A stretch of DNA of 64,000 nt. It comes from Exophiala sp. HKRS030 (taxonomy: Eukaryota; Ascomycota; Eurotiomycetes; Chaetothyriales; Herpotrichiellaceae). The stretch is from contig JAHWDD010000007.1 of the NCBI GenBank assembly GCA_023897205.1, forward strand, positions 1,612,001 through 1,676,000. Reading direction: 5' to 3'. Shown piece by piece: positions 29,453 to 47,677 of this stretch (its first letter is position 1; each line of letters begins with the position of its first letter). The notes below the pieces were generated by a model, which saw nothing but the letters and a program-made list of their open reading frames with translations, made no database searches and had not been told where the DNA came from. Both the position numbers and the translations under genes were made by a program.

Positions 29453-31710
29453 TTAGACGATTCTGACAGATTCGCGGGGCCATCTGCTCCTCTTATACTC
29501 TTGGAAGACTTCTCTGCAAAAGATGCGCTTTGACCGTCGGACCCCACCCCTAGAGTTGAGGCGATGGTCCAGTGATTGTTCCTGAGGTCCGATTCTTCTG
29601 GATAAGAACGAGGGAGACGTCGGTATGCTGTAGAAGCTCAGTCGCAAAACACCCAGGCGTTCAAAGACCGTGCCCCTCTCGTCTTTGCGTGACTGTGATC
29701 TCCTGAGGATAAGGGCATCAACACGGCAATCAATTGAAGGAAATTCTTGAACCAACAACAAGGCGGCGTAGCAGCCTTCACCAGAAAATTCGTTTGCTCT
29801 CTGACCGTAATCGAGCTCAACCACACGAGAAAGGTGGCGCTCGAAAGCCGAAAGATTACTCGATGCGGAACGCCAGGTAGGATGGTAAAGCCGAGAAAAC
29901 CGGCAGACCGGTCCGCGTATGGTGACTTGGGCGTGCAAGACACCGCCGAACGGATTGCTTGACTCCACCAGATCAAAGCTGACGTCTTCCAGTGCTGCCA
30001 GGGACCTAAGGCTCTTGTTTGTCCAGTCGTTTCGAATGGTATACCCACAAGGAGCGTTGGCCCAGCTCCAGGAAGGAGCTTCGACCTCGACATCATGGGT
30101 AGACTGATCAAGTTTGTTGCCGAATAGCTCCAAGCCTTTGGCGTACCACAACAAACCTGGAAGCATGTCTGACTGCCAAAGACCTGCCACATACCTATCG
30201 CTTTGGAGGGTCGCTCCATACATTCTCGCAATTCCTGAAATTGCAACGAGTCGATCTCGCCGGTATTTCACACATCGAGCAGAGTAGTCTTCGACGATGT
30301 CGTACCAGATGCGATATCTATCATGGAGTGAATGACATTCCGGATTCTCCAGGTACTTTGGCAGGAGTTTGAACTTGGTGAAAAGGTCGAACGTCCAGAA
30401 GGGCCTTCCACCTGGTTCGTCCACAATGCTGAGAACGAACTCAGTCATGGGAACGTGTTGGACGGCTCGCTCGTACCGAACCATACTACAGCATTTCCAG
30501 GCGATGTGATGAGAAGAATAGAACAAGATTCGGTTTGGTAGGAGTCCTTCTTGCAGAGTCCAGGCACGTTTAGACCATGGTCCGGTCAACTGGTCGTTGC
30601 GATCGGGCCACGAGTGCGAGACGTACACCTGCGGCGGGTTTCGGCATTCGTCACTGGCGACCTGATTCGTCTCCTCTTTCCAAGAGATTCCGACGTACTG
30701 GGTTTCCCGCTGTCTCAGGAAGCTCTGCGAGGCATCATCCGTGTCCACGCTGGCGATGGTCACCGTTGATTGTCCATAGATGAAACTCATCTGTGAAGAT
30801 TGCTCCAACCAATCGGACTCCTGGTCTTGAAATATGCACAGTGCATCAACCCACAGATATTGAATCCCTAACCCCCTACTGATGATGATTGCATCCTGGA
30901 TGGTTGCGTCCAAAGCCGAGATCTCAACACCGTCTTTCAAAAGCTTTTCTGTTCTTTTCATCAACTTCAACGGCGGCTCCCTGTCCCCCCACCGGTAGCT
31001 CAGAGCAATCCATGGTCGCAGTGATACTCTGGGCGGGAACTCGACAAGGTGCGGATTTCTACTCTCACTTCCGACATGTAGGAAGCGTATTAGCGATCTC
31101 GGACCTGTTAAGTTGGGGGCCGGGCAAGCGTGATTCTCCAGGCAAGATGTGAGCCATCTTGAAGCAAGCGCCACACAGCCGGGATCCTTAGAATGAGGAT
31201 ACAATTTGCTGAGCGGTTCGAACGGAAGGTTTGAAGGTATGTTGACAGAATCTTTCAGTGTTAGGTCAGTAGAAAGGTGCTCTGCAGCAAATGAGACATA
31301 CTATAATCAATGCTAATGTCAAGATCACAAAGGCTGATCGGCCCTTCCTCAGGGCTCGCGAAGAATGACCTTAGTTTCGGCTCTAGGTATGGCGAAAAGT
31401 GAGGAGGATCATTTTTATAGTCTTCTATTGTCTTGCCCTGCGTGAGGATTATAGGAAGATCGCCCGCTAGTTGTGCTGCCCCTGGCTCTTTGCGTTTGAA
31501 TGCGTCGAATAGAAGCGTGCACAAACCACAACCGGCCGAAGCTGCGGCTTGTATCTGGGATATGTTATCAGAATGCCTGAAGCACAAACTGTCTAAGTGC
31601 TCGTCCCAAAAATATTGTCGATCTAGAACGACGTTTGTTGGCAAACCCACGTCAGGGTAATTGAAGATCTGGTACAGATCGAAGCTATTGCAAGTAGTGC
31701 ATAGGGCCAT
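29453..31710 (-). CDS. HET domain protein (heterokaryon incompatibility-type)
   Basis: Two exons, 31710-31302 and 31251-29453, give 735 residues. The 50-nt intron has donor GTATGT, branch CTAAC and acceptor AAAG, and restores the frame exactly. The N-terminus begins with a Cys-containing segment (MALCTTCNSFDLYQIF, then SAGCGLCTLLFDAF), as in many HET proteins. The HET domain begins near residue 200 with IALSYRWGD, continues with AIIISRGLGIQYLWVDALCI and SQMSFIYGQSTVTIAS, and ends with RAWTLQEGLLPNRILFYSS. HET proteins control non-self recognition and cell death after hyphal fusion; they are numerous and fast-evolving, and most have no known partner. No NACHT, ankyrin or prion-like partner domain is visible here. 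Confidence 0.92.
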
Positions 31711-37344: not shown

Positions 37345-37921
37345 ATGGACGACGCAACCGCAACCAACAAAGTCAACGGCGCCAGTCATGACGACGACGA
37401 CGAAAACAACAGCAAATACAACTCCTCCTCTTCCTCCTCCTTCCCTTCAACTCATCACACGGACCGAGCCAAGATTGCCTCTGATATGGCCAAGCGTATC
37501 GCCGGTGGTGCGAACCTGCAGACCCTTGCACACGACCAGAACATGACTGTGGAACAAGTCTGTCGCATGGTTGCCATGTTTGCAGATCAAGCGGGCGAAA
37601 TTGCCAGAGCCACTCTTGGATCGGTATGTTTTTTCTTTCTCTCGCCTTGACGTCTCCACGCAGTCAATTATATGAATCATGTGCCGACAACTAACTGCAA
37701 GAATGTAGGACACCATGTACAACGTCATCGCCGAGAACAAGGAAGGTCAAGGCAAGGCCATCCAAGATCAATGTGAGCAAGAGATGATGAAGGCGAATCA
37801 CAAAGTGTCAAATGGCTTGAAGAACGGAGCAGAGGAAGAGAAAGAGGATGAAGATGAGGCAACAAAGATCCCGCCACGGATGCCTCAGAATTTCAATCCT
37901 TTCGTGTACTACCGCCTGTAG
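37345..37921 (+). CDS. Small protein A with one HTH-like module
   Basis: Two exons, 37345-37623 and 37709-37921, separated by an 85-nt intron (GTATGT, branch CTAAC, acceptor TAG), give 163 residues. The start was chosen at MDDATATNKV; the frame is open upstream to 36952, but that part is not protein-like. Residues 1-40 are acidic and Ser-rich (DDDDENN, SSSSSS). Residues ~43-80 form a compact helical module: KIASDMAKRIAGG, then NLQTLAHDQNMTVEQV and CRMVAMFA. This fits a helix-turn-helix pattern and matches modules in the proteins at 42810-43601 and 44648-45325. The C-terminal half is Glu/Lys-rich and helical, ending NFNPFVYYRL. No known family is recognised; DNA or protein binding is inference. 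Confidence 0.65.
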
Positions 37922-38335
37922 ACGCGGTGGCCCGCGGGCTAGTCACGATACCTTTTGTGGTTGTGTCCAAAGCGAGAGAGAAATTGACATTAGTTTCTCA
38001 TGTGATTGAGATTGAGATACCTATTCAGCGATGACAGAGAATGTCGATTGATGAAGCATGAGAAAGAGATCGAAACTGAATGGAAAAGCTGACCGAAAAT
38101 TGACGCGTCATGATTGTTGTGGCTCGAGGTTACACAAGGCTGAACGAACGCGAGGCTGAATTTCTCCTTTTGATTGGGTGTCGGCTTTTTTTTCTTTAGC
38201 TTCACCCTTGGACTTCAGCTTGCTGCCTGCCTTTACAGCTACAGCATCACCTACTCAAGAGACGTTCATAGGCTCAAGTCTTTGCGGTCTAAGTAATCGA
38301 ATAATGACCGACCGACTCTGCCCTCCTCATACCTC
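37922..38335. other. Convergent intergenic region
   Basis: 414 bp between the 3' ends of small protein A and the DHA1 transporter. Nothing recognisable. Confidence 0.55.
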
Positions 38336-40192
38336 CTAAGATACCGCAAATCGACTCCTTTTCCTCAACCTGGCCCCATAAAAGTAGATGAAGTACATTC
38401 CAAAGACACAAATCACAGTCAATCCAGCAAGCAAGCTGACTGCACCGTCTATACCAAGCGTATCAAACATGGGCCGCGCGTAGGAGATTGCCCCAGCCGC
38501 GAACAATGCCCTTGCAAATCCGTTGGCGGCGAACAGAGATCCCGAATACTGCGCGTACGTAAACGGCAAGTAAATAAACATGCACTGTGTGATGACAAAG
38601 ACGCCCATCATACTAAGTCCCACTCCAATCAGGCTGACGATCCAGTGTACACTCGACCGTGCTGTCCAAGCTGTAATATCGTCACACATGCGTTAGAATA
38701 TCGACCTCGACCTGAGAGTGCCGAGAGCAGGTCAGTATAAACGTACCAAAGATGATCAACCCAGCCGGGATGAAGAATGTCGCGACAAGTCCAGGCCACA
38801 GCCGCGCTTCAGGTGGAACAACTTGCATACTCGCCATCTTTGCGTCCGCGTAGAAATAAAAGTATGAACAGTACAACATCATTGCGAGAACCAAACCCAC
38901 GAGCACGGAGAGAAATGCAAGTCCAATCTGGCCAAGATTGAACCCGTACTCATCGCCATATACGAGTGGAAAGGCCTCGAAGAAGGAATAGTATATCCCG
39001 TATATCAATGCCGTGTAGATCGTGGTGAACAAAACCGCCGGGTCGAGTATGTTGATCTGCCAAGGTTTGATGAGGGCATCGAAGACAACTTGTCGAGGCG
39101 ATAGTTTGGCTTGTTTGAATTCAGACGCAGCTTTGAGGTCAAGACATCCTGTGCGTGCTCGGAGTCGTTGAGCCCGACGGAGCAAAATGTTGTCGGATGA
39201 TGTCTCTGGCAGGGATAAAAGCATGAGGAACAAAGTGAAGCCGGACAGCCATAGAAGCTCCCATGAGGACCATCGCCACGTCTTAGCCTGGACTGAGAAC
39301 CCACCTACAAGAGGACCGAGAGCCTAAGACGATGTTTAGTGTTAGCCAGATGTGGGCATGATATGGAAAGAAGTGAATGACGTGACAGGCAACAAGAGAC
39401 ACAACATACTGGACCAAGCGTCGCTCCACATCCCCAGAACGTTATCACATAAGGCATGATCTTTGCACCGTAAAAGTCTCCATAGCTTGCTCCACCTGTT
39501 GAGAGAGCAGGTGATCCAAAGAATCCCAGCAGAAATCGCAGGACCAGTAGCCCCGGAATATTGTCGACAAGAGCCATTGGGATACAGAGGATGAACAACA
39601 GGAAGAAGGTGATGATGTAAGGAATGTTTCGACCGATCGATGGAATCTCAGAGAGTGGGCTCAGAATGAGCGGCGCCACTCCGTATCCAAGGACGTACAA
39701 AGACAAGCCAAGAGAGCCAATGACTTGAGGGATGTGGTACATGTTGACGATGTCGGGAATACTTGCAGTGTACATCGACGTGCCAATGTACACAGTGAAA
39801 GTATACAACAGTATAACGAAGGAGACGTAGCCTTTCTTGAGAGGCGACCAGTTGTGAGGATCGTCTGGATCCGAGTCCTCGTACCAGGACACAATGATTT
39901 CTTTCCTCTGGTTGTAGTTTGGTCCTGCTTCCGGGTCAAGTGATCCATTGCGTCTCTTTTGTCCACCGCTGTCAAAGTCGTCCACTTCACAGCTCGGTTG
40001 ATGTGCTTGGGGGAGATCGCCATGTTCAGGAATGTTATCATGATTGTCGACTTGCTTCTGGACATCTTCAGGCTGCCAGTACTCTGTCCTTAGCAGAAAG
40101 TCTGGTAAAGATTCACGATGAGGGGCAAGGCGGCCACGACTGAATTGACGAAGAAGATAGCCAAGTGTTGAATCCCGCACAATGTCGTACAT
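38336..40192 (-). CDS. MFS transporter, DHA1 multidrug family
   Basis: Three exons, 40192-39410, 39323-38747 and 38670-38336, give 564 residues. Introns of 86 and 76 nt carry GTATGT/TAG and GTACGT/CAG ends. The N-terminal ~120 residues are cytosolic and contain the DPDDPHNWSPLKKGYVS segment typical of fungal DHA1 drug:H+ antiporters. Twelve hydrophobic helices follow. Helix 1 reads FVILLYTFTVYIGTSMYTAS, helix 4/5 carries LVLRFLLGFFGSPALSTGGA, and the central loop reads LPETSSDNILLRRAQRLRA. The family exports xenobiotics, polyamines or secondary metabolites at the plasma membrane. The Zn2Cys6 gene directly upstream on the same strand (519 bp away) is a plausible regulator of this transporter. 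Confidence 0.92.
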
Positions 40193-40711
40193 GGTGACTT
40201 TTATTGGCGAACACGAGGAGATTTTGGAAGAGCCAAAGCAAGACCATCGAGGGGACTGTACGCACGCAGGTGTTAGTATCCTCTGTCTTCACCTTTATAG
40301 TCTTCATCTGATGCTCGATGGTATGATGGAGCTCCACTCGTCCCATTGCTAGCGTCAGAATGTTGCGCAAAGCTAACCACGATGGGTAAGTCCGACTTCC
40401 TTGCACTTGTACCAGGGGCATGATGAAGTGGCCTATCGTGGATCGTTGCAAGGTTTCTCATGGACGTAGGAGTTCCACAGGTGGAGATCACAGGTACAGC
40501 AGATCAATGTTTGCTCTGATCGGAGCGACAATGGAACTGGGATTGAGTCATGTTCGTCTCGCCGCCAACTCCTTCGAGGTCGATCAGTCATACAGGCTGA
40601 AGCAACATACCCGCCCATATCAGAACGTGTCCCTCGGCAATGTATCGAAAGGGAAGGGTTTCTTGTTCCTGTGCATTCTTAGCTGAGGGCCACATAACTG
40701 TCAGTAGTACT
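40193..40711. other. Promoter region of the DHA1 transporter
   Basis: 519 bp between the transporter start and the stop codon of the Zn2Cys6 gene. No additional gene. No obvious paired CGG triplets were seen by eye. Confidence 0.5.
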
Positions 40712-42374
40712 TCATACCTGCGAAAGAAGTGTGGCCTGACCAATACCCATGGTGAGACCAATCCATGCCAGACATTCGCGCATCCGAGCTCTAATCTCCA
40801 ACGGTACGATAGATGTGGCGGTGATCACCCACAGTGGATGAAGCAAAAGTAGTCCGCCGATAGATTTGCCAGGAAGAATCGTTGGCATGTCGCCGTTAGA
40901 CTTGGAATCAAGGGACAACCTGTCGGTGCTCAACTGGTACGGGATGGATGCGATAATGTCTTCGACAAGAATGAGAGCTGTGGTCAAGTCGTCCTGTGCA
41001 TTGGGAACATCAATCAGGATGCTCTTACATCGGACGATGATCTCAAGGATGAGGAGGCGTGATTTTCGGTATGTATTCCAGACGGCGGCAACGTAATCTG
41101 TGGTGGTGAGACAAATTGCCCAACAATAGGCCAGAGAACACTTACAATCAAAGTAGCTGTCAATTCTTCCTGAACAGTAATTTTTACTATTGGATAACCG
41201 AAATCCTGCCTGGCTGATTGTCTTGGGCTGCCACTCTTGGATTTGACTGGCTTCCCATTGTGCAAAAGCTCCATCAAGTGTCTTAGCTTCCTCGAGGATA
41301 TTACTGATCTCTTCGTCCGGAGGGACCGTTTCGTCCAAGACAAAGGCTTCTCGTGCTTTGTAGAAGACAGAGTGGAATCTGATCAATATCTTGTCCAGAT
41401 TCTGAACCGAATCATTGGAAAATGGTGCGCATAGGAGCCCACAACCTCGAACCTACTTCAGAGGTTAACATGTCTCCCCCTATAGATTGTCCAGCGAGGA
41501 CTGTACTCGCCTCCAACAGTTTTTTGAGAACTAGCGGGTTATGGAGCTGGAAGAGTTCGATTCCGGCAGCCAAGTCGAATGGCGAATGGGGTTCGGACAA
41601 GATGGCGGCAATGCCGCGAACATGGAGAGTGTGATGGCCGGGGTTTTCATTGTCACCGGCGACGATCTAGAAAGGGCATAAGTGAGAAGGACAACGATAT
41701 AATGAAGGCACGAACCTCATAAATACCAAGTAAAACAGCTGTCATCAGTGCCTCCACTGATCCTGCTGTCGCCGGCGTGCCCAGCACCTTCTGAAACGAC
41801 AGAAGCAACCTACCATATTGACTTCTTGCTTCCTCTACGTAGTCAGACCGGCCGGACTTGTTCCCCACGGCTGCCAATGCGACGGTTCGTGCAGCTTCGG
41901 CAAGATCAGACGAAGTGTCCTTGCCCACCAAAGATTCAAATCCATCGAGATATCCTCGTGAGATGTTTCTGTCTTTCGAAGTTACGCAAAAGTCTTCGAG
42001 AAATACTCGAAGGAAATCGATTGCTTTAGATTGAGTCTGAGGTTCTAGATCATCTTCACACAGCTTGACAGATGATAGATTCATCCTTTGAAGTTTAGGT
42101 TGTCCCACATATTGGCGAAAGACGAGACTCGAGTCATACTCATCGTACCCTGGACAAGGCCTTTTCGACTTGAGGCACCGATTGCAGGCCTTTCAATATT
42201 AGTCCGCGTGTAGGATCAAATTAATATGCCACAAAGACTTACTGGTCGGGTCTCGTCGCACTGAACTTCCAATTAGCCACGGCGATTTTATCGTCTGAGT
42301 GTCTATAGCAAACCTACCTTCTTCCGTCTCTGTTTACAGGCCTTACAACCACGAGAAGCCCCATGATTCACCAT
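40712..42374 (-). CDS. Zn2Cys6 transcription factor next to DHA1 transporter
   Basis: Six exons (42374-42318, 42260-42243, 42189-41716, 41666-41457, 41401-41146, 41097-40712) close to 466 residues. The zinc cluster is split across three exons, including an 18-nt second exon, and reassembles perfectly as C-x2-C-x6-C-x6-C-x2-C-x6-C: GCKACKQRRKK, CDETRPA, CNRCLKSKRPCPGYDEYD. The rest matches the fungal-specific regulatory region of this class (DLAEAARTVALAAVGNKSG, HHTLHVRGIAAILSEP, the C-terminal RMRECLAWIGLTMGIGQATL). Introns are 48-57 nt with good consensus ends, and two carry CTAAT/CTAAC branches. It should be a nuclear regulator. Its adjacency to the DHA1 transporter suggests control of efflux. 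Confidence 0.88.
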
Positions 42375-42809
42375 CTGAGTGTAGTACGCTTGCTAAGAGC
42401 TGCCTCGGTACGAATATGGAACTCCTGTTCAACTACATTGAGTACACCCGTTGAGAGGGAAGAAGTCGTCAAATGGTAATACGCATCCATCGTTCGAATG
42501 ACGGCAAGACCTTGCAAGGTACGTGAAATCTTACCTAATGATACACAGCCTTGTGCTTAAGTAATGTGAGCCAATACCTTCTTGGCAAGGCTGTGATTAC
42601 AAGGATGAACAATGTCGTGCCGCCACAATCCCAAGGAAACACAGAAACAAGGACATCAATTTGAACCTCATTCTCTATGGGGTCTTGGTCTGCAACTTGA
42701 ACATCATGTTTGCTAGATTTCGAAAAACAATCAATCATCCAACAGTGTCTTGACTCCACACCACAAAATTTCCCATTCTTGTGTCCTCTGACGGAACCTT
42801 CGACTGATT
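42375..42809. other. Promoter region of the Zn2Cys6 gene
   Basis: 435 bp between the Zn2Cys6 start and the stop codon of small protein B. A 92-codon frame (42535-42813) lacks features. Confidence 0.5.
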
Positions 42810-43601
42810 TCAAACGCCCGCGTTTGCAGCGTCCGCATCCCTCTGAGCCGCGAACCGCGCAATTTCTCTCACAATGCTAGAAGGGTGACCACGCATCCGA
42901 AATCTCCTCGCGACCTCCTCGACTGACATTCCATTGTTGATGTGTCTGATCATGCGGCGTACACCTGCCGTCCCGATGGCGTCGCGGGCGGTCCAATGAA
43001 CACCAACGACGGCGGCGCCCAATTTTGGAGCAGGAGCAGGAGCAGGACGATGTTGCTGGTCAGCCAGTGCTTCTGCGACTTCGTCGGATGTGATTGTCGT
43101 CCAACCATCCTCGTCATTCTGTGAGACAGCCATGTACGGATCCAAGTGTATGGGAATCGTTCGAGTTTTGGTCTTGGGCTCGGTATCGGTGCTGTTTTTC
43201 ATAAGGTGGCCTTTGATGTAAACATTGGTATCGACGAGCGGGTCATCAATAGCCGAAGTAATGGTTGGAACGATGACATTAGCTGCATTCTGGCGAACAT
43301 GGTTCCGACGTTCTGCTTCTGCACGGTTCACAAAGTTAGCTTGATTTGTTATCATCATAAACGCAGCAAAAACGTATGAGAGGAAAGAAGGGCACATACT
43401 CTTGGTCGTGATATCTTCCAAAATCATCTCGAAGCTGCTCTCGTCGTCACTACCATCACTCTCATGTTCAAGCCTTGAATCGCCATCATCTGGCTTTGGT
43501 CTTTCCAAGAGTTTCTCTGTATCATCGACAAGTCAGTCACAATTGTCCGTGAACAAAACGATACCACTCCCCCACTTACCTGATAGCTTAGTTGATGCCA
43601 T
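42810..43601 (-). CDS. Small protein B with one HTH-like module
   Basis: Three exons, 43601-43580 (only 22 nt), 43516-43400 and 43318-42810, join in frame to 215 residues. Introns have GTAAGT/CAG and GTATGT/CAG ends, with branch CTAAC in the second. Residues 15-45 are acidic (DDGDSRLEHESDGSDDESS). A polar middle section includes DEDGWTTITSDEVAEALADQ and a Pro/Ala repeat PAPAPAPK. The C-terminal ~50 residues hold the module GVRRMIRHINNG, MSVEEVARRFRMRGHP, SSIVREIARFA. This has the glycine/polar turn and VA/IA spacing of an HTH and parallels small proteins A and C. No known family is recognised. The Arg-rich module could contact nucleic acid, but that is inference. Confidence 0.65.
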
Positions 43602-44647
43602 GTCCGGAGTTGTTGAAAGTGCTTCGTCGACAAGCGAAGAGAGATGATGTCGCGCTGTGAGAATTTCCTTGGAAAAGAAATTCCAGAGATCCTATCACTC
43701 TGTAAGAACATCCACAACTTATAAGTTTGGAATAAAGATGGAAAAGGGAGGGAAAAGGTAAGTACAATGAACGTAGACAATAGGTGATGGGGACGCAGAC
43801 GTAGTGGCAAACGCATCTCTATCCTTGTTCACCCCCCCAACACCCAACAAGGGGTATATCATTCCAGTTATCCCACAGAAACAAAGAAGAAAGGGAAAAA
43901 CTTACGGGTGATACAGGATGATGCAGAAAGGGAGACCTTACAGGTGGTGAAGAATGGATGTGGGTGATGCAGGTGATGCTAGGATGGCAGGGAAATGCCA
44001 TCCATCCATCCATGACTATTGATGCTGTCAGGCTGTCACCCCGAAACAGAAGGCAGTTGGAGGTCCTCTTTGTATAAATGGTATAGGACTGTACGTTGGA
44101 GAGCGGATCTGTGAAACCCAAGACTCGAAAATGATTTCGATCCTGTCATGGCAAAAGTGGTCAGTGGTCAGTAACAATGACAGAGGCCAGGATGGAAGTC
44201 AACTACGAACATACCATATAATGATATTGAATTTCACTTGGTTCCATGATTCATCATGTTAAAGGTATACGCCAAACTCACCGTCTACACAGTCCCGGAG
44301 CTTCACTTAAGTAGAGCGCAGATGACAAACGAGAACTCGTTTATCTACTTGAAGTGCTACAATCAGTTCACCGTTTACATGACTGACCAGACGAACGAAA
44401 ACACATGAACACGAAAGACACCAGACGAGAGCAAGAGTAAGAAATGGAAAGAAAAAAGGTCAACGACACCCAACACCATCCAGTTTCGTTTCATTTGAAC
44501 GTTAAGAGGCTTTCAAGGCCAATCCTCCTGGGTCAGAGGTCACCTACGCCCATCTACGTACTGACCGGCCACCAGTCATCAATGGTGTCTTCCACCTGTC
44601 CACATAAACGCACACACACACAAACGAGACCGCCCCATATTTTGTCA
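43602..44647. other. Intergenic region with short direct and inverted repeats
   Basis: 1.05 kb between small proteins B and C. It contains GGTGATGCA-type direct repeats, a CCATCCATCC run and an 8-bp hairpin near 43982-44003, probably in the promoter of gene B. A 100-codon minus-strand frame covering the repeats is not protein-like. Confidence 0.5.
43982..44003. repeat. 8-bp inverted repeat (hairpin)
   Basis: GGATGGCA at 43982-43989 is perfectly complementary to TGCCATCC at 43996-44003 across a GGGAAA loop. It lies about 380 bp upstream of the start of small protein B and is followed by further CATC units. It may be a protein-binding site or chance within a CATC-rich tract. Confidence 0.6.
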
Positions 44648-45325
44648 TCACTCCATACACAAACCCCATTGGGCAATCGTCTCGATCATATCCCTGACGG
44701 TAAAAGCGTACCGACTCGCCACCACCTCTGGAAAGACACCTTCACAAATCTCCCATACCATACTTCCAAGTAACCAAACCCTCAATTCCATCGCATTTGT
44801 TGGTGGGTAGTTGTTGTTGGTGTTGGTGTTGCCGTTGTTGCCGTTGCTGCTGTTGTTGTTGTCCTGGGTGGCAAACCCAAACTCATCCATCTTCCTCTCA
44901 ACGTGTTGAGCGATACGGACCACCACGTCACGAGGCGTGACTCGGTGTTGGCGTGCCACCAGAGACAAAGAGATATTGTTGGCCATCTTTCTCATCATGT
45001 GGACGGTCTCCGAATCCCACCAACCACGTTGGTAGTCCGTCATTGTCAAGTAACCATTGTCGACGGGGAGACCCGAAGCTCCAAGGGCCATGTCCGCACG
45101 GGTCATGGCGGAGGGTGCCAGGAGATGAAGCGGGAGGAGGAGTCGGCCTCCGTTGAAACGACACGCTTCAAAGGACATGGGTGCTAAACCAAAAAAAAGG
45201 TAAGAAGTAGCATGGGAACACATCACACACACGCATGCACGCACGCAATCATTAGTGCGGGAGTAGAAGTAAAAGAAAAAGAAAAGAAAAGCGCAAGTTC
45301 ATCAACACTTACTGACGTTCGCCAT
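44648..45325 (-). CDS. Small protein C with two HTH-like modules
   Basis: Two exons, 45325-45313 (13 nt, encoding MANV and one base) and 45183-44648, give 182 residues. The 129-nt intron starts GTAAGT and ends TTTAG after a pyrimidine tract. If the short exon is wrong, translation could begin at the ATG at 45178. Residues ~64-98 are a first module (TVHMMRKMANN, ISLSLVARQHRVTPRDV, VVRIAQHV) and ~141-177 a second, weaker one (LLGSMVWEICEG, VFPEVVASRYAFTVRDM, IETIAQW). They are separated by an Asn/Gly/Thr-rich linker encoded by AAC-type repeats. The tandem arrangement suggests internal duplication. No known family is recognised; it is related by pattern to small proteins A and B. Confidence 0.62.
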
Positions 45326-45922
45326 ATCAATGGCACGAGGTCGAGCGTAAACGCGACCCAAGCGAAGTTGTTGAATCCAGTCCATTTTTTTTGGATGTCT
45401 TCTGCGCCCAAGACCAAGACCGAAAGGAACAAAAAAGAGAGGACAAGACTCGGTCGAATGACAGAAGTAGGTTGTGAGGTTTTTTTAGAGCAAGAGCCAA
45501 CGGAAAATGCGTGATGATAGACAACCAATTCCTGCTGGACGAAGCTGAAAAAAAGAAGATACAGAGAAAAGTAAGACGAAGAGACCAGCAGGAATATCAA
45601 AAAAGATGTGAATTCACAAAGTAAAACTGAGCATTCAACATTGCGAAGTTCCATCAATAACCAAAGGCGGTCGGGTACAAAAAAGGGTCGCGAAGTCCAC
45701 TATGGGAAGGCGGTGTCGAATGGCCGGTGAGAAGAACAGAAGATTGTGAATGATGTAGAGCCATCGCGAACCATTGATGAATTGGATCGTAAAACAAACC
45801 ACGCTAGACATGCATTCGCAGAATGTCTTTGTCTTCTTTCCTCGCCGAAAATAAACAAACCCCGGCCAGGAAAAACAACTCAGTCAAGAAGACCATATCA
45901 AGCAAGCCCAAAAAAACCAACA
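45326..45922. other. Upstream region of small protein C
   Basis: 597 bp between small protein C and the permease stop codon. AG-rich on the plus strand; only short frames are seen. Confidence 0.5.
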
Positions 45923-47677
45923 TCAGGCAATCCAGAACCATACCCGTTCAAAGACGTTTCTTGGTTTCACCTCTGGCCAACCTCCTTCCATGCGGTCGAT
46001 CTCGGCTTTCCCACTCCACAGGTCCATATCCTTCAGACGAACAAATCTCGTCCGTTTGATAAATTTGTAACCCAAGAAAAGACAGGCAAAGATCGGAATG
46101 TCGATGTAAGGCGGGACAAAGGATTTCGCACTGAAGCGGCCAGGGAAGAAGCAGTCGAAGCCGTTGAAAAGGGCGACGGTGAGGCAGAAGCAGATGGAAA
46201 AATAAGCCAGGAACGGTTGGAACGGAGACTTGTACGGCAAGCTGGATCGTGCTATGCCGTTGTGCCTGAGAGCGTAGTAAAACCGAAGATACGTGACGCA
46301 GATACTGGCCCACACGATCAAGGTGCTCACGGCCGAAAGGTTCGAGATCCAGAAAAAGACATCGGATGAACGAGAACTGACGTTGAGGTAGACCAGCAGG
46401 CTGAGTAGGCTGGTCGCAGCCACGCACGCATATGGCACACCGAACCGTTCGAACCTGAGAAAAGCGGGAGCTCTGTGATCAAGAGCAGTAGAGTATAAGA
46501 CTCGCGTGGAGGCGTAAAAGAATGAATTCCCCGCCGACCATGCAGATGACAGGATGACCGCATTGATGATGGATGGCAGCGCTGGGATTCCTCCGTTAAC
46601 AATCGCAATCACAAAGGGACTCGCTGCTGCTCCTGGTGCCGAATTGTCGATTGCATTCAAAAGCCGAGGGTCTTTGGATGAGACACACATGCCGATCAAT
46701 AACATCGTGAGGACGTAGAAAATAGCAACTCTCCAAAACACTCTCCGTACGGCTTTGGGGATATTTCTGCGAGGATTTTCCTGTGTGGATGTGAATTTTC
46801 GAATCTCGGTCAAGAAGAGCCGTACTTACAGTCTCTCCGGCCGCGATGACAACCATCTCACTGCCTCCGTAGCTAAAGGTAGCAGAGATGAAGATCTTCC
46901 AGAAGGCGAGGAAGCGGCCCAAAGCCCCCGTCTCGAGATACTCCAGCATCGGGCCAGGGTGATCCCAATACCGAAAGCCAATTCTGTCGTGGTTCGGGGC
47001 GCCACCAAGGGTGATGATGAACATCAGCAGGATAAGTCCAACGATAGTGGTCAACTTGATCGCACCAAAGACAAATTCGGCTTCTCCATAGACGCGCACT
47101 GGGAAGCAGTTGATGGCCACCATTGGTACGAAAAGGACGGTGATCCAGACTGCGTTGGGCACTGAATTGGGCCAATATCCTATGACGACCGCTGAGGCGG
47201 AGATCTCGATTGGCACACCGATCGCCAGTTGGTACCAGTAGTTCCAGCCCTAAAGCATGTCAGCCAACGATACCAGGATGATGGGGTTTGTGTCCGACGG
47301 ACCAAGGTGAAGCCCAAAGCAGGGTCGACAAATCGCGCTGCAAACACTGGAACAGCACCGGGAAGAGGCAGGTATGTAGCCATCTCTCCGAGAGAGTTAA
47401 TGACAGCATAAAGGTTGAAACCCGTGATGAGGTAGGCTAGGAAGGCGGACAACGGTCCGGCAAGACTCAAGGCCTGGCCGCTTCCGACGAACAGGCCAGT
47501 GCCGATGGCGCCTGATAATGCCAGAAATTGAACATGACGCGACTTCAGCTTACGATCGAGGGTGCCAACGTTTCTCTGCTCGTGCTCAAGGTTTTTGAGA
47601 TCTTCGTCGTCGGTGCGGGCGTCGACGTCGGCATCTTCTACCTTGCCAGGCTCGATGTCTTTGGGCTCAGGCTCCAT
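45923..47677 (-). CDS. Amino-acid permease, YAT family
   Basis: Three exons, 47677-47303, 47249-46830 and 46780-45923, give 550 residues. Intron 1 uses a less usual donor GTCCGT; intron 2 has GTAAGT/CAG. All phases match. The polar N-terminal ~45 residues are followed by the permease signature SGAIGTGLFVGSGQALSLAG, then LAYLITGFNLYAVINSLGEM, and the typical AAGETENPRRNIPKAVRRVF loop across the second splice junction. Later helices include NSFFYASTRVLYSTALDHRA. The tail is cytosolic, with DLWSGKAEIDRMEGGWPEVK. The family (yeast GAP1/AGP-type) co-transports amino acids with protons at the plasma membrane, and substrates vary. Twelve hydrophobic segments are expected and about that number can be counted. 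Confidence 0.93.

What the first reader, a model, noticed from the sequence alone, without database searches (positions are those of the whole stretch)
37345..45325. Three neighbouring small proteins share a ~37-residue HTH-like module
Translated exons at 37345-37921 (A), 42810-43601 (B) and 44648-45325 (C) contain segments alignable by eye: A MAKRIAGG-ANLQTLAHDQNM; B MIRHINNG-MSVEEVARRFRM; C1 MMRKMANN-ISLSLVARQHRV; each is followed by a V-x3-(I/V)A-x3 helix. The pattern (hydrophobic helix, Gly/Asn turn, LA/VA helix, polar turn, V..IA helix) is that of a helix-turn-helix. The outer sequences are unrelated and low-complexity. Three such genes within 8 kb suggest a local, fast-diverging family not described to my knowledge. 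It might be a set of small DNA- or protein-binding adaptors. The alignment is by eye and short, so convergence of simple helices cannot be excluded.
Basis: partly seen in the sequence, partly recalled or inferred. Interest (0 to 1): 0.75.

Follow-up and report, generated by a model that had tools for sequence, protein, structure and literature searches.

The report
Linked helix-turn-helix genes in black yeast
Three small neighbouring genes of a black-yeast fungus each seem to carry one or two copies of the same short three-helix unit, of the kind that often grips DNA, in proteins so far filed only as 'hypothetical'.

Summary
Genes A, B and C are real spliced genes: deposited Knufia peltigerae proteins match A and B, and C has Exophiala relatives that move its start to 45385. 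They carry four modules (A, B, C1, C2). A profile of C1+C2+B ranks module A above every unrelated window ORF examined (77.4 against 26.7); 0 of 466,169 shuffled or reversed 36-mers reach it. On 200 kb of E. coli its best hits lie in PinQ and NarL, proteins with known HTHs. AlphaFold models of C and, separately, A give the same long-short-long three-helix unit at the same alignment columns, with moderate confidence (module pLDDT about 62-79). No fifth copy was found in the window or 200 kb of flanks. A linked set of small HTH proteins, found mainly in Exophiala/Knufia-type black yeasts, is likely.

Descent by local duplication is probable but unproven: HMMs link B and C but not A, and A, B and C1 resemble PinQ's HTH about as well as they resemble C2. 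No function is shown; charge suggests that B and C1 bind nucleic acid and C2 a partner. No Pfam or NCBIfam cut-off is met. Interest is moderate.

The parts
37345..37921 (+). Gene A, 163 aa, exons 37345-37623 and 37709-37921; ortholog Knufia peltigerae H2204_001028
37486..37593 (+). Module A (residues 48-83): three-helix HTH-like unit, net charge 0
   Evidence: leave-one-out profile; model of ortholog P0013; charge
42810..43601 (-). Gene B, 215 aa, exons 43601-43580, 43516-43400, 43318-42810; orthologs H2204_001026 and E. spinifera PV08_03374
42840..42953 (-). Module B (residues 169-206), basic (+5), with a 2-residue insertion in the turn before helix 3; structure not modelled
   Evidence: profile-profile match to C1, HMM match, leave-one-out, charge
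44648..45385 (-).
   Evidence: relatives such as P0002 and P0005; splice sites
44891..44998 (-). Module C1 (residues 87-122), basic (+6 here; +3 to +6 in the 10 family rows)
   Evidence: model helices 63-81, 86-92, 97-115 of P0001
44654..44761 (-). Module C2 (residues 166-201), acidic (-3 here; -1 to -3 in the 10 rows), the most conserved of the four regions of C compared (mean pairwise identity 0.80)
   Evidence: model helices 144-160, 165-171, 176-190 of P0001

Best explanation
A, B and C are a linked set of small proteins built on one 36-residue, three-helix helix-turn-helix unit (A one, B one, C two), with named relatives almost only in Exophiala/Knufia-type black yeasts, and probably derived by local duplication of one module. 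Shown: the genes, the four modules, their shared pattern, their linkage, and the conservation of C. Supported by models: the three-helix unit in A, C1 and C2. Inferred: the proteins act inside the cell; B and C1, which are basic, contact DNA or RNA; C2, which is acidic, tryptophan-bearing and the best conserved, is a protein-binding or dimerising copy, so that C works as a bridge or co-regulator; A, whose module is neutral and whose tails are acidic, is a partner or modulator. No function has been measured.
For: Leave-one-out profile scores A 77.4, B 87.0, C1 118.7, C2 72.8; the best unrelated ORF in the window or 200 kb of flanks reaches at most 44.8 in any of the four tests. The same profiles' two best E. 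coli hits are in PinQ and NarL in all four tests (gene names; that these stretches are their HTHs is recalled). HMMs: C1 finds B (13.1 bits; best of 10,230 decoys 10.4) and B finds C (17.0; best decoy 9.2). hhalign B-C1 P 2.5e-5, C1-C2 7.6e-4. Two models made without each other's sequences place helix 2 of A (LQTLARD), C1 (LSLVARQ) and C2 (PEVVASR) in the same columns. B and C have consecutive locus tags in E. spinifera. Charges.
Against: Standard HMMs do not link A; hhalign A-B falls in another register and A-C2 is P 0.06. A, B and C1 with PinQ's HTH form a tighter foursome than A, B, C1, C2 (36.3 against 33.3), and PinQ outscores C2 on C2's own leave-one-out profile (84.3 against 72.8). The models are of modest confidence (mean pLDDT 53.4 and 54.7; only the best of five models of C exceeds 44) and Foldseek has no match with E below 1. 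No intron position is shared near the modules. Helix 3 is only weakly basic, even in B and C1. The profile misses other kinds of HTH, so 'no other copy' speaks only of this subtype.
Confidence: 0.5

Rival explanations
1. The modules are real HTH units but not close kin: each gene independently holds a generic HTH, and their nearness is partly chance.
For: Some bacterial HTHs score nearly as well (PinQ to B 44, against A-B 41); A,B,C1,PinQ beats A,B,C1,C2; A is not linked by HMM; no shared intron position near the modules.
Against: No other such unit was found in the ORFs of about 256 kb around, so four in 8 kb by chance is unlikely; within-minus-cross similarity ranks 1 of 126 groupings; C2 resembles the other three modules more than the five bacterial controls (mean 23.7 against -7.2).
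Confidence: 0.28
2. The modules descend from the DNA-binding end of a mobile-element enzyme (a resolvase/invertase-type or transposase-type HTH) that was captured and then duplicated.
For: The best E. coli match in all four leave-one-out tests is the recombinase PinQ; B's weak family matches include HTH_38 (E 0.05) and a PHROG called transposase (E 0.075).
Against: These matches are below the curated cut-off or not significant; no enzyme domain was found in A, B or C; the E. coli sample is only 200 kb.
Confidence: 0.12
3. Convergent short amphipathic helices with no common fold.
For: The modules are short and only 7-12 of 36 columns are identical in any pair; the models are of moderate confidence.
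Against: Zero of 466,169 shuffled or reversed windows reach A's score, and the models agree on helix boundaries column by column.
Confidence: 0.07

Closest known systems
Three-helix HTH domains of LuxR/NarL/GerE type (PDB 1je8, 6jqs, 1fse)
   Same: Short helix 2 followed by helix 3; both models list NarL/GerE-type domains among weak Foldseek hits (A: 1je8_A, 1.9 A over 40 columns, 25% identity; C: 6jqs GerE, 1.3 A over 39 columns, 10% identity).
   Different: E-values 2.4 and 6.3, so not significant; no receiver domain was found; long helices 1 and 3; eukaryotic.
HTH_38 / HTH_23 (Pfam PF13936, PF13384)
   Same: B residues 173-201 match HTH_38 weakly (13.8 bits, E 0.05).
   Different: Below the cut-off (27 bits); A and C give no match to either; no transposase domain found.
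HTH of the PinQ recombinase (E. coli K-12 control)
   Same: Best E. coli scorer with each leave-one-out profile; B to PinQ 44, 9 of 36 identical.
   Different: No recombinase domain found; taken from a 200-kb sample, so it is the nearest seen here, not the nearest known.
Sf6-type terminase small subunit (PF20901)
   Same: Best Pfam match of A, covering the module (residues 42-90, E 0.048).
   Different: 14.2 bits against a cut-off of 27; no phage context.

Membership tests
Three-helix helix-turn-helix fold | three helices with a short helix 2, a tight turn, then helix 3 | tested here: met
   A: 32-49, 54-60, 65-87; C1: 63-81, 86-92, 97-115 and C2: 144-160, 165-171, 176-190; module block pLDDT 62-75 (A) and mostly 67-79 (C1, C2); predicted models only; B not modelled
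Three-helix helix-turn-helix fold | sequence resemblance to known HTHs | tested here: met
   the top two E. coli hits of each leave-one-out profile are in PinQ and NarL; that these stretches are HTHs is recalled
Three-helix helix-turn-helix fold | significant structural match to a solved HTH | tested here: inconclusive
Three-helix helix-turn-helix fold | DNA binding | not testable with these tools
   charge pattern only
Pfam HTH_38 (PF13936) | score over the curated cut-off (27 bits) | tested here: not met
   B 13.8 bits; A and C not listed
Pfam Sf6_terminase (PF20901) | score over the curated cut-off (27 bits) | tested here: not met
   A 14.2 bits
One local paralogous family A+B+C | mutual profile hits above all decoys | tested here: inconclusive
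   met for B and C; for A only with the near-ungapped leave-one-out profile, not with HMMER
One local paralogous family A+B+C | linkage kept in other species | tested here: inconclusive
   consecutive tags of B and C in E. spinifera (PV08_03374/03375, both with a longest contig of 3,929,205 bases); A and B in K. peltigerae (H2204_001028/001026) both list a longest contig of 799,556 bases; the DNA of these genomes was not seen

The most novel reading that the evidence does not exclude
A black-yeast-specific family of HTH-only mini-regulators, multiplying at one locus, in which gene C fused two copies and split their jobs: a basic module (C1) that grips nucleic acid and a nearly invariant acidic module (C2) that has become a protein-docking surface for the products of the neighbouring genes.
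Probability: 0.25. Interest if true: 0.6.

Novelty: new member of a known kind. Interest (0 to 1): 0.4.

Why it matters
If true, it would show how a lineage-restricted regulator family can arise in fungi, which rely mostly on other factor types such as Zn2Cys6 and C2H2 (recalled): by spreading a tiny HTH module through neighbouring genes and letting copies drift between nucleic-acid and protein binding. It also gives a likely fold and a testable role to genes deposited only as 'hypothetical protein' in Exophiala and Knufia.

Tried and rejected
HMM searches for A: not taken as proof either way. HMMs built from 2 near-identical A rows, or from B+C1+C2, do not link A; the simple additive profile does. 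I think the latter is more tolerant of distant substitutions, but this was not tested.

In one search the figures for C1 and C2 left out (P about 1e-15) are invalid, since the target ORF holds the sister module used in the profile; one search scores each module alone and replaces them.

Curated families: Pfam and NCBIfam gave nothing over a cut-off. PHROGs gave weak matches, all to different or unnamed families: P0012 to phrog_36246 (E 0.0012, residues 123-203, reaching into the module), P0013 to phrog_104, a portal family (0.0038), P0006 to phrog_28498 (0.0042, residues 109-165), P0001 to phrog_5897 (0.012). Two unnamed families, phrog_28498 and phrog_22028, appear for both P0006 and P0010 (E 0.004-0.14) and were not followed. 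PDB sequence search gave 1, 3 and 0 matches at E<=10, none an HTH regulator and none below E 0.9. A match of B's middle block to an ORF at C1:4730912 (E 0.014) looked like an acidic stretch of an ORC4-like protein (name recalled from the translation) and was taken as chance.

HTH_23 and HTH_38 searches of the whole genome gave 10 and 4 places (lower bounds), one over its cut-off in total. None of the stretches around these 14 loci scored above 23.8 with the four-module profile. So they were not added to the set; it also shows that the profile does not detect every HTH.

Literature: no paper in the library holds any of six locus tags tried. Other searches, of which I saw only titles and abstract starts of the rows listed: Knufia peltigerae genome (4 of 4 listed), Exophiala/HTH/lineage-specific (12 of 416), Chaetothyriales orphan genes (10 of 241), black-yeast genomics (8 of 76), fungal-specific small HTH proteins (8 of 10), domesticated transposase HTHs (2 of 2). 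No listed row was on these genes. In PMC5415576 only the passages found were read.
Full report
What was checked. The window lies at G000:C7:1612001-1676000 in a 59.8-Mb, 50-contig fungal genome. Database relatives place it next to the deposited genome of Knufia peltigerae, order Chaetothyriales: B is 99% and A 91% identical to its proteins in the alignments. My spliced models of A and B have the same start, end and exon joins as those deposited proteins. For C, 10 database clusters match, one of them the window's own. Named ones come from Exophiala spinifera, E. xenobiotica, E. sideris and E. viscosa, plus one labelled Elasticomyces elasticus; four have no name.

How widely the genes occur. 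At E<=10, C matched 10 clusters including the window's own, B two (K. peltigerae and E. spinifera), and A two (K. peltigerae and the window's own ORF). This search needs shared 5-residue words, so diverged orthologs can be missed. B and C bear consecutive locus tags in E. spinifera, PV08_03374 and PV08_03375. A and B in K. peltigerae are H2204_001028 and H2204_001026, both with a longest contig of 799,556 bases.

Is the module more than chance? The register is 36 columns without gaps, except for two extra residues in B. Profiles were built by summing BLOSUM62 scores with equal weight for C1 (10 rows), C2 (10 rows), B (2 rows) and A (2 rows), leaving out the module under test. A scores 77.4 where the next unrelated ORF among the window's 930 stop-to-stop ORFs of 40 aa or more reaches 26.7, and 0 of 466,169 shuffled or reversed 36-mers reach it. 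Forty shuffles of the window's ORFs give maxima of mean 27.4 and top 43.7 (Gumbel P about 4e-4). For B the score is 87.0 (P about 4e-5). Scored alone, C1 has 118.7 and C2 72.8; the best ORF in 200 kb of flanks (3,021 ORFs) reaches 36.7, 25.2, 37.2 and 44.8 in the A, B, C1 and C2 tests. Pairwise, all six combinations beat shuffles (7-12 of 36 identical; z 3.9-6.0). HMMER gives a weaker picture: C1 and B find each other above all 10,230 decoys, but A is not linked. hhalign gives P 2.5e-5 for B-C1, 7.6e-4 for C1-C2, 1.8e-3 for B-C2 and 3.8e-3 for A-C1, while A-C2 is 0.06 and A-B (2.9e-3) aligns in a different register over 14 columns.

Is it a helix-turn-helix? As a control, 200 kb of E. coli K-12 was scanned with the same profiles. 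The best two hits of each of the four leave-one-out profiles are in PinQ and NarL, with PtrR, MhpR and PdeL in some lists (gene names; that the matched stretches are the HTHs of these proteins is recalled). Lower rows include chance matches, and most annotated regulators of the four stretches do not appear among the rows printed. That profiles made only from these fungal modules pick HTHs first out of bacterial ORFs is independent support. AlphaFold2 of C (database row P0001, 10-row alignment) gives helices 63-81, 86-92, 97-115 and 144-160, 165-171, 176-190, with block pLDDT in the modules mostly 67-79 and five model means of 53, 44, 42, 40 and 39. A (P0013, two rows, so effectively a single sequence) gives 32-49, 54-60, 65-87 with block pLDDT 62-75 in the module. 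Helix 2 falls on LQTLARD, LSLVARQ and PEVVASR in A, C1 and C2, the same columns of the register, and helix 3 starts at the same column. Structure searches are only suggestive: no Foldseek match at E<=0.001. For C, the best VIA rows are mostly bacterial HTH regulators (ChrA 6.0, TraR 5.8, GerE 5.8, RhlR 5.3, sigma-28 5.3), with unrelated proteins among them. For A, helical bundles lead.

Are they kin or merely all HTHs? Mean pairwise similarity among A, B, C1 and C2 is 33.3, against 17.7 among five bacterial HTHs and 13.1 across; within-minus-cross ranks first of 126 groupings, but by the within-mean alone A, B, C1 and PinQ score higher (36.3). PinQ (84.3) also outscores C2 (72.8) on the profile of A, B and C1. 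The five bacterial controls were picked because they scored well with these profiles, which favours the null. The stronger argument for kinship is rarity: four units in 8 kb and none found in the ORFs of the remaining roughly 256 kb of window and flanks. Units broken by introns, units of another HTH subtype (one search shows that the profile misses these), or units in other parts of the genome could be missed. Searches of the whole genome with three relatives and with two Pfam HTH families found no further member, but these searches are not sensitive to distant copies.

What do they do? Nothing measured bears on this. In all 10 C-family rows C1 is basic (+3 to +6) and C2 acidic (-1 to -3). B is +5 and its E. 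spinifera ortholog +3; A is 0. The third helix alone is near neutral (-1 to +2) in every row. C2 is the most conserved of the regions of C compared (mean pairwise identity 0.80, against 0.69 for C1, 0.60 for the N-terminal block and 0.28 for the linker). The reading I prefer is that B and C1 contact nucleic acid and C2 docks a partner, with A a partner or modulator. The fold is likely (about 0.85), kinship more likely than not (about 0.6), the division of labour a guess (about 0.3).

Comparison with what is known. No cut-off of Pfam or NCBIfam is met, and PHROGs gave only weak, mostly unnamed matches (listed under Tried and rejected). Two weak Pfam matches fall on the module and are to HTH-bearing families (HTH_38 for B, Sf6 terminase for A), both below cut-off; the other weak ones, such as Dak2 and RRP7, look like chance. 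Shelest 2017 (PMC5415576, passages) lists HTH types found in fungi, such as AraC, Fis, Psq, lambda-repressor-like and homeodomain-like; none was shown to be the parent here. The kind of domain is known; the family and its arrangement are not named in anything I found (searches in Tried and rejected).

Noticed in passing
window 38297-42192 (-): Between A and B lie an MFS transporter (Pfam MFS_1) and a gene with a CxxC..C stretch that looks by eye like part of a Zn2Cys6 cluster (no Pfam match in the single ORFs tried).
   Followed up: partly
window 45926-46825 (-): Amino acid permease (PF00324, E 1.5e-63) beside gene C.
   Followed up: no
window 29456-31300 (-): HET-domain (heterokaryon incompatibility) gene (PF06985) about 6 kb from gene A.
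   Followed up: no
P0008: A C relative is filed under Elasticomyces elasticus, a Dothideomycete, yet by eye it is nearly the same as the Exophiala sideris protein: mislabelled genome, contamination or transfer.
   Followed up: no
L013-L017 (C2:5721402, C3:5524983, C3:7797265, C4:5788457, C7:2941494): Five places with the same HTH_23 score and the same 384-aa open-frame length, as a repeated mobile element would give.
   Followed up: no
window 42810-43601 (-): B holds two further conserved blocks outside the module (FEMILEDITTKKAERRN and KTKTR...ADQ; 0.71 and 0.85 identity to E. spinifera) with no convincing family match.
   Followed up: partly
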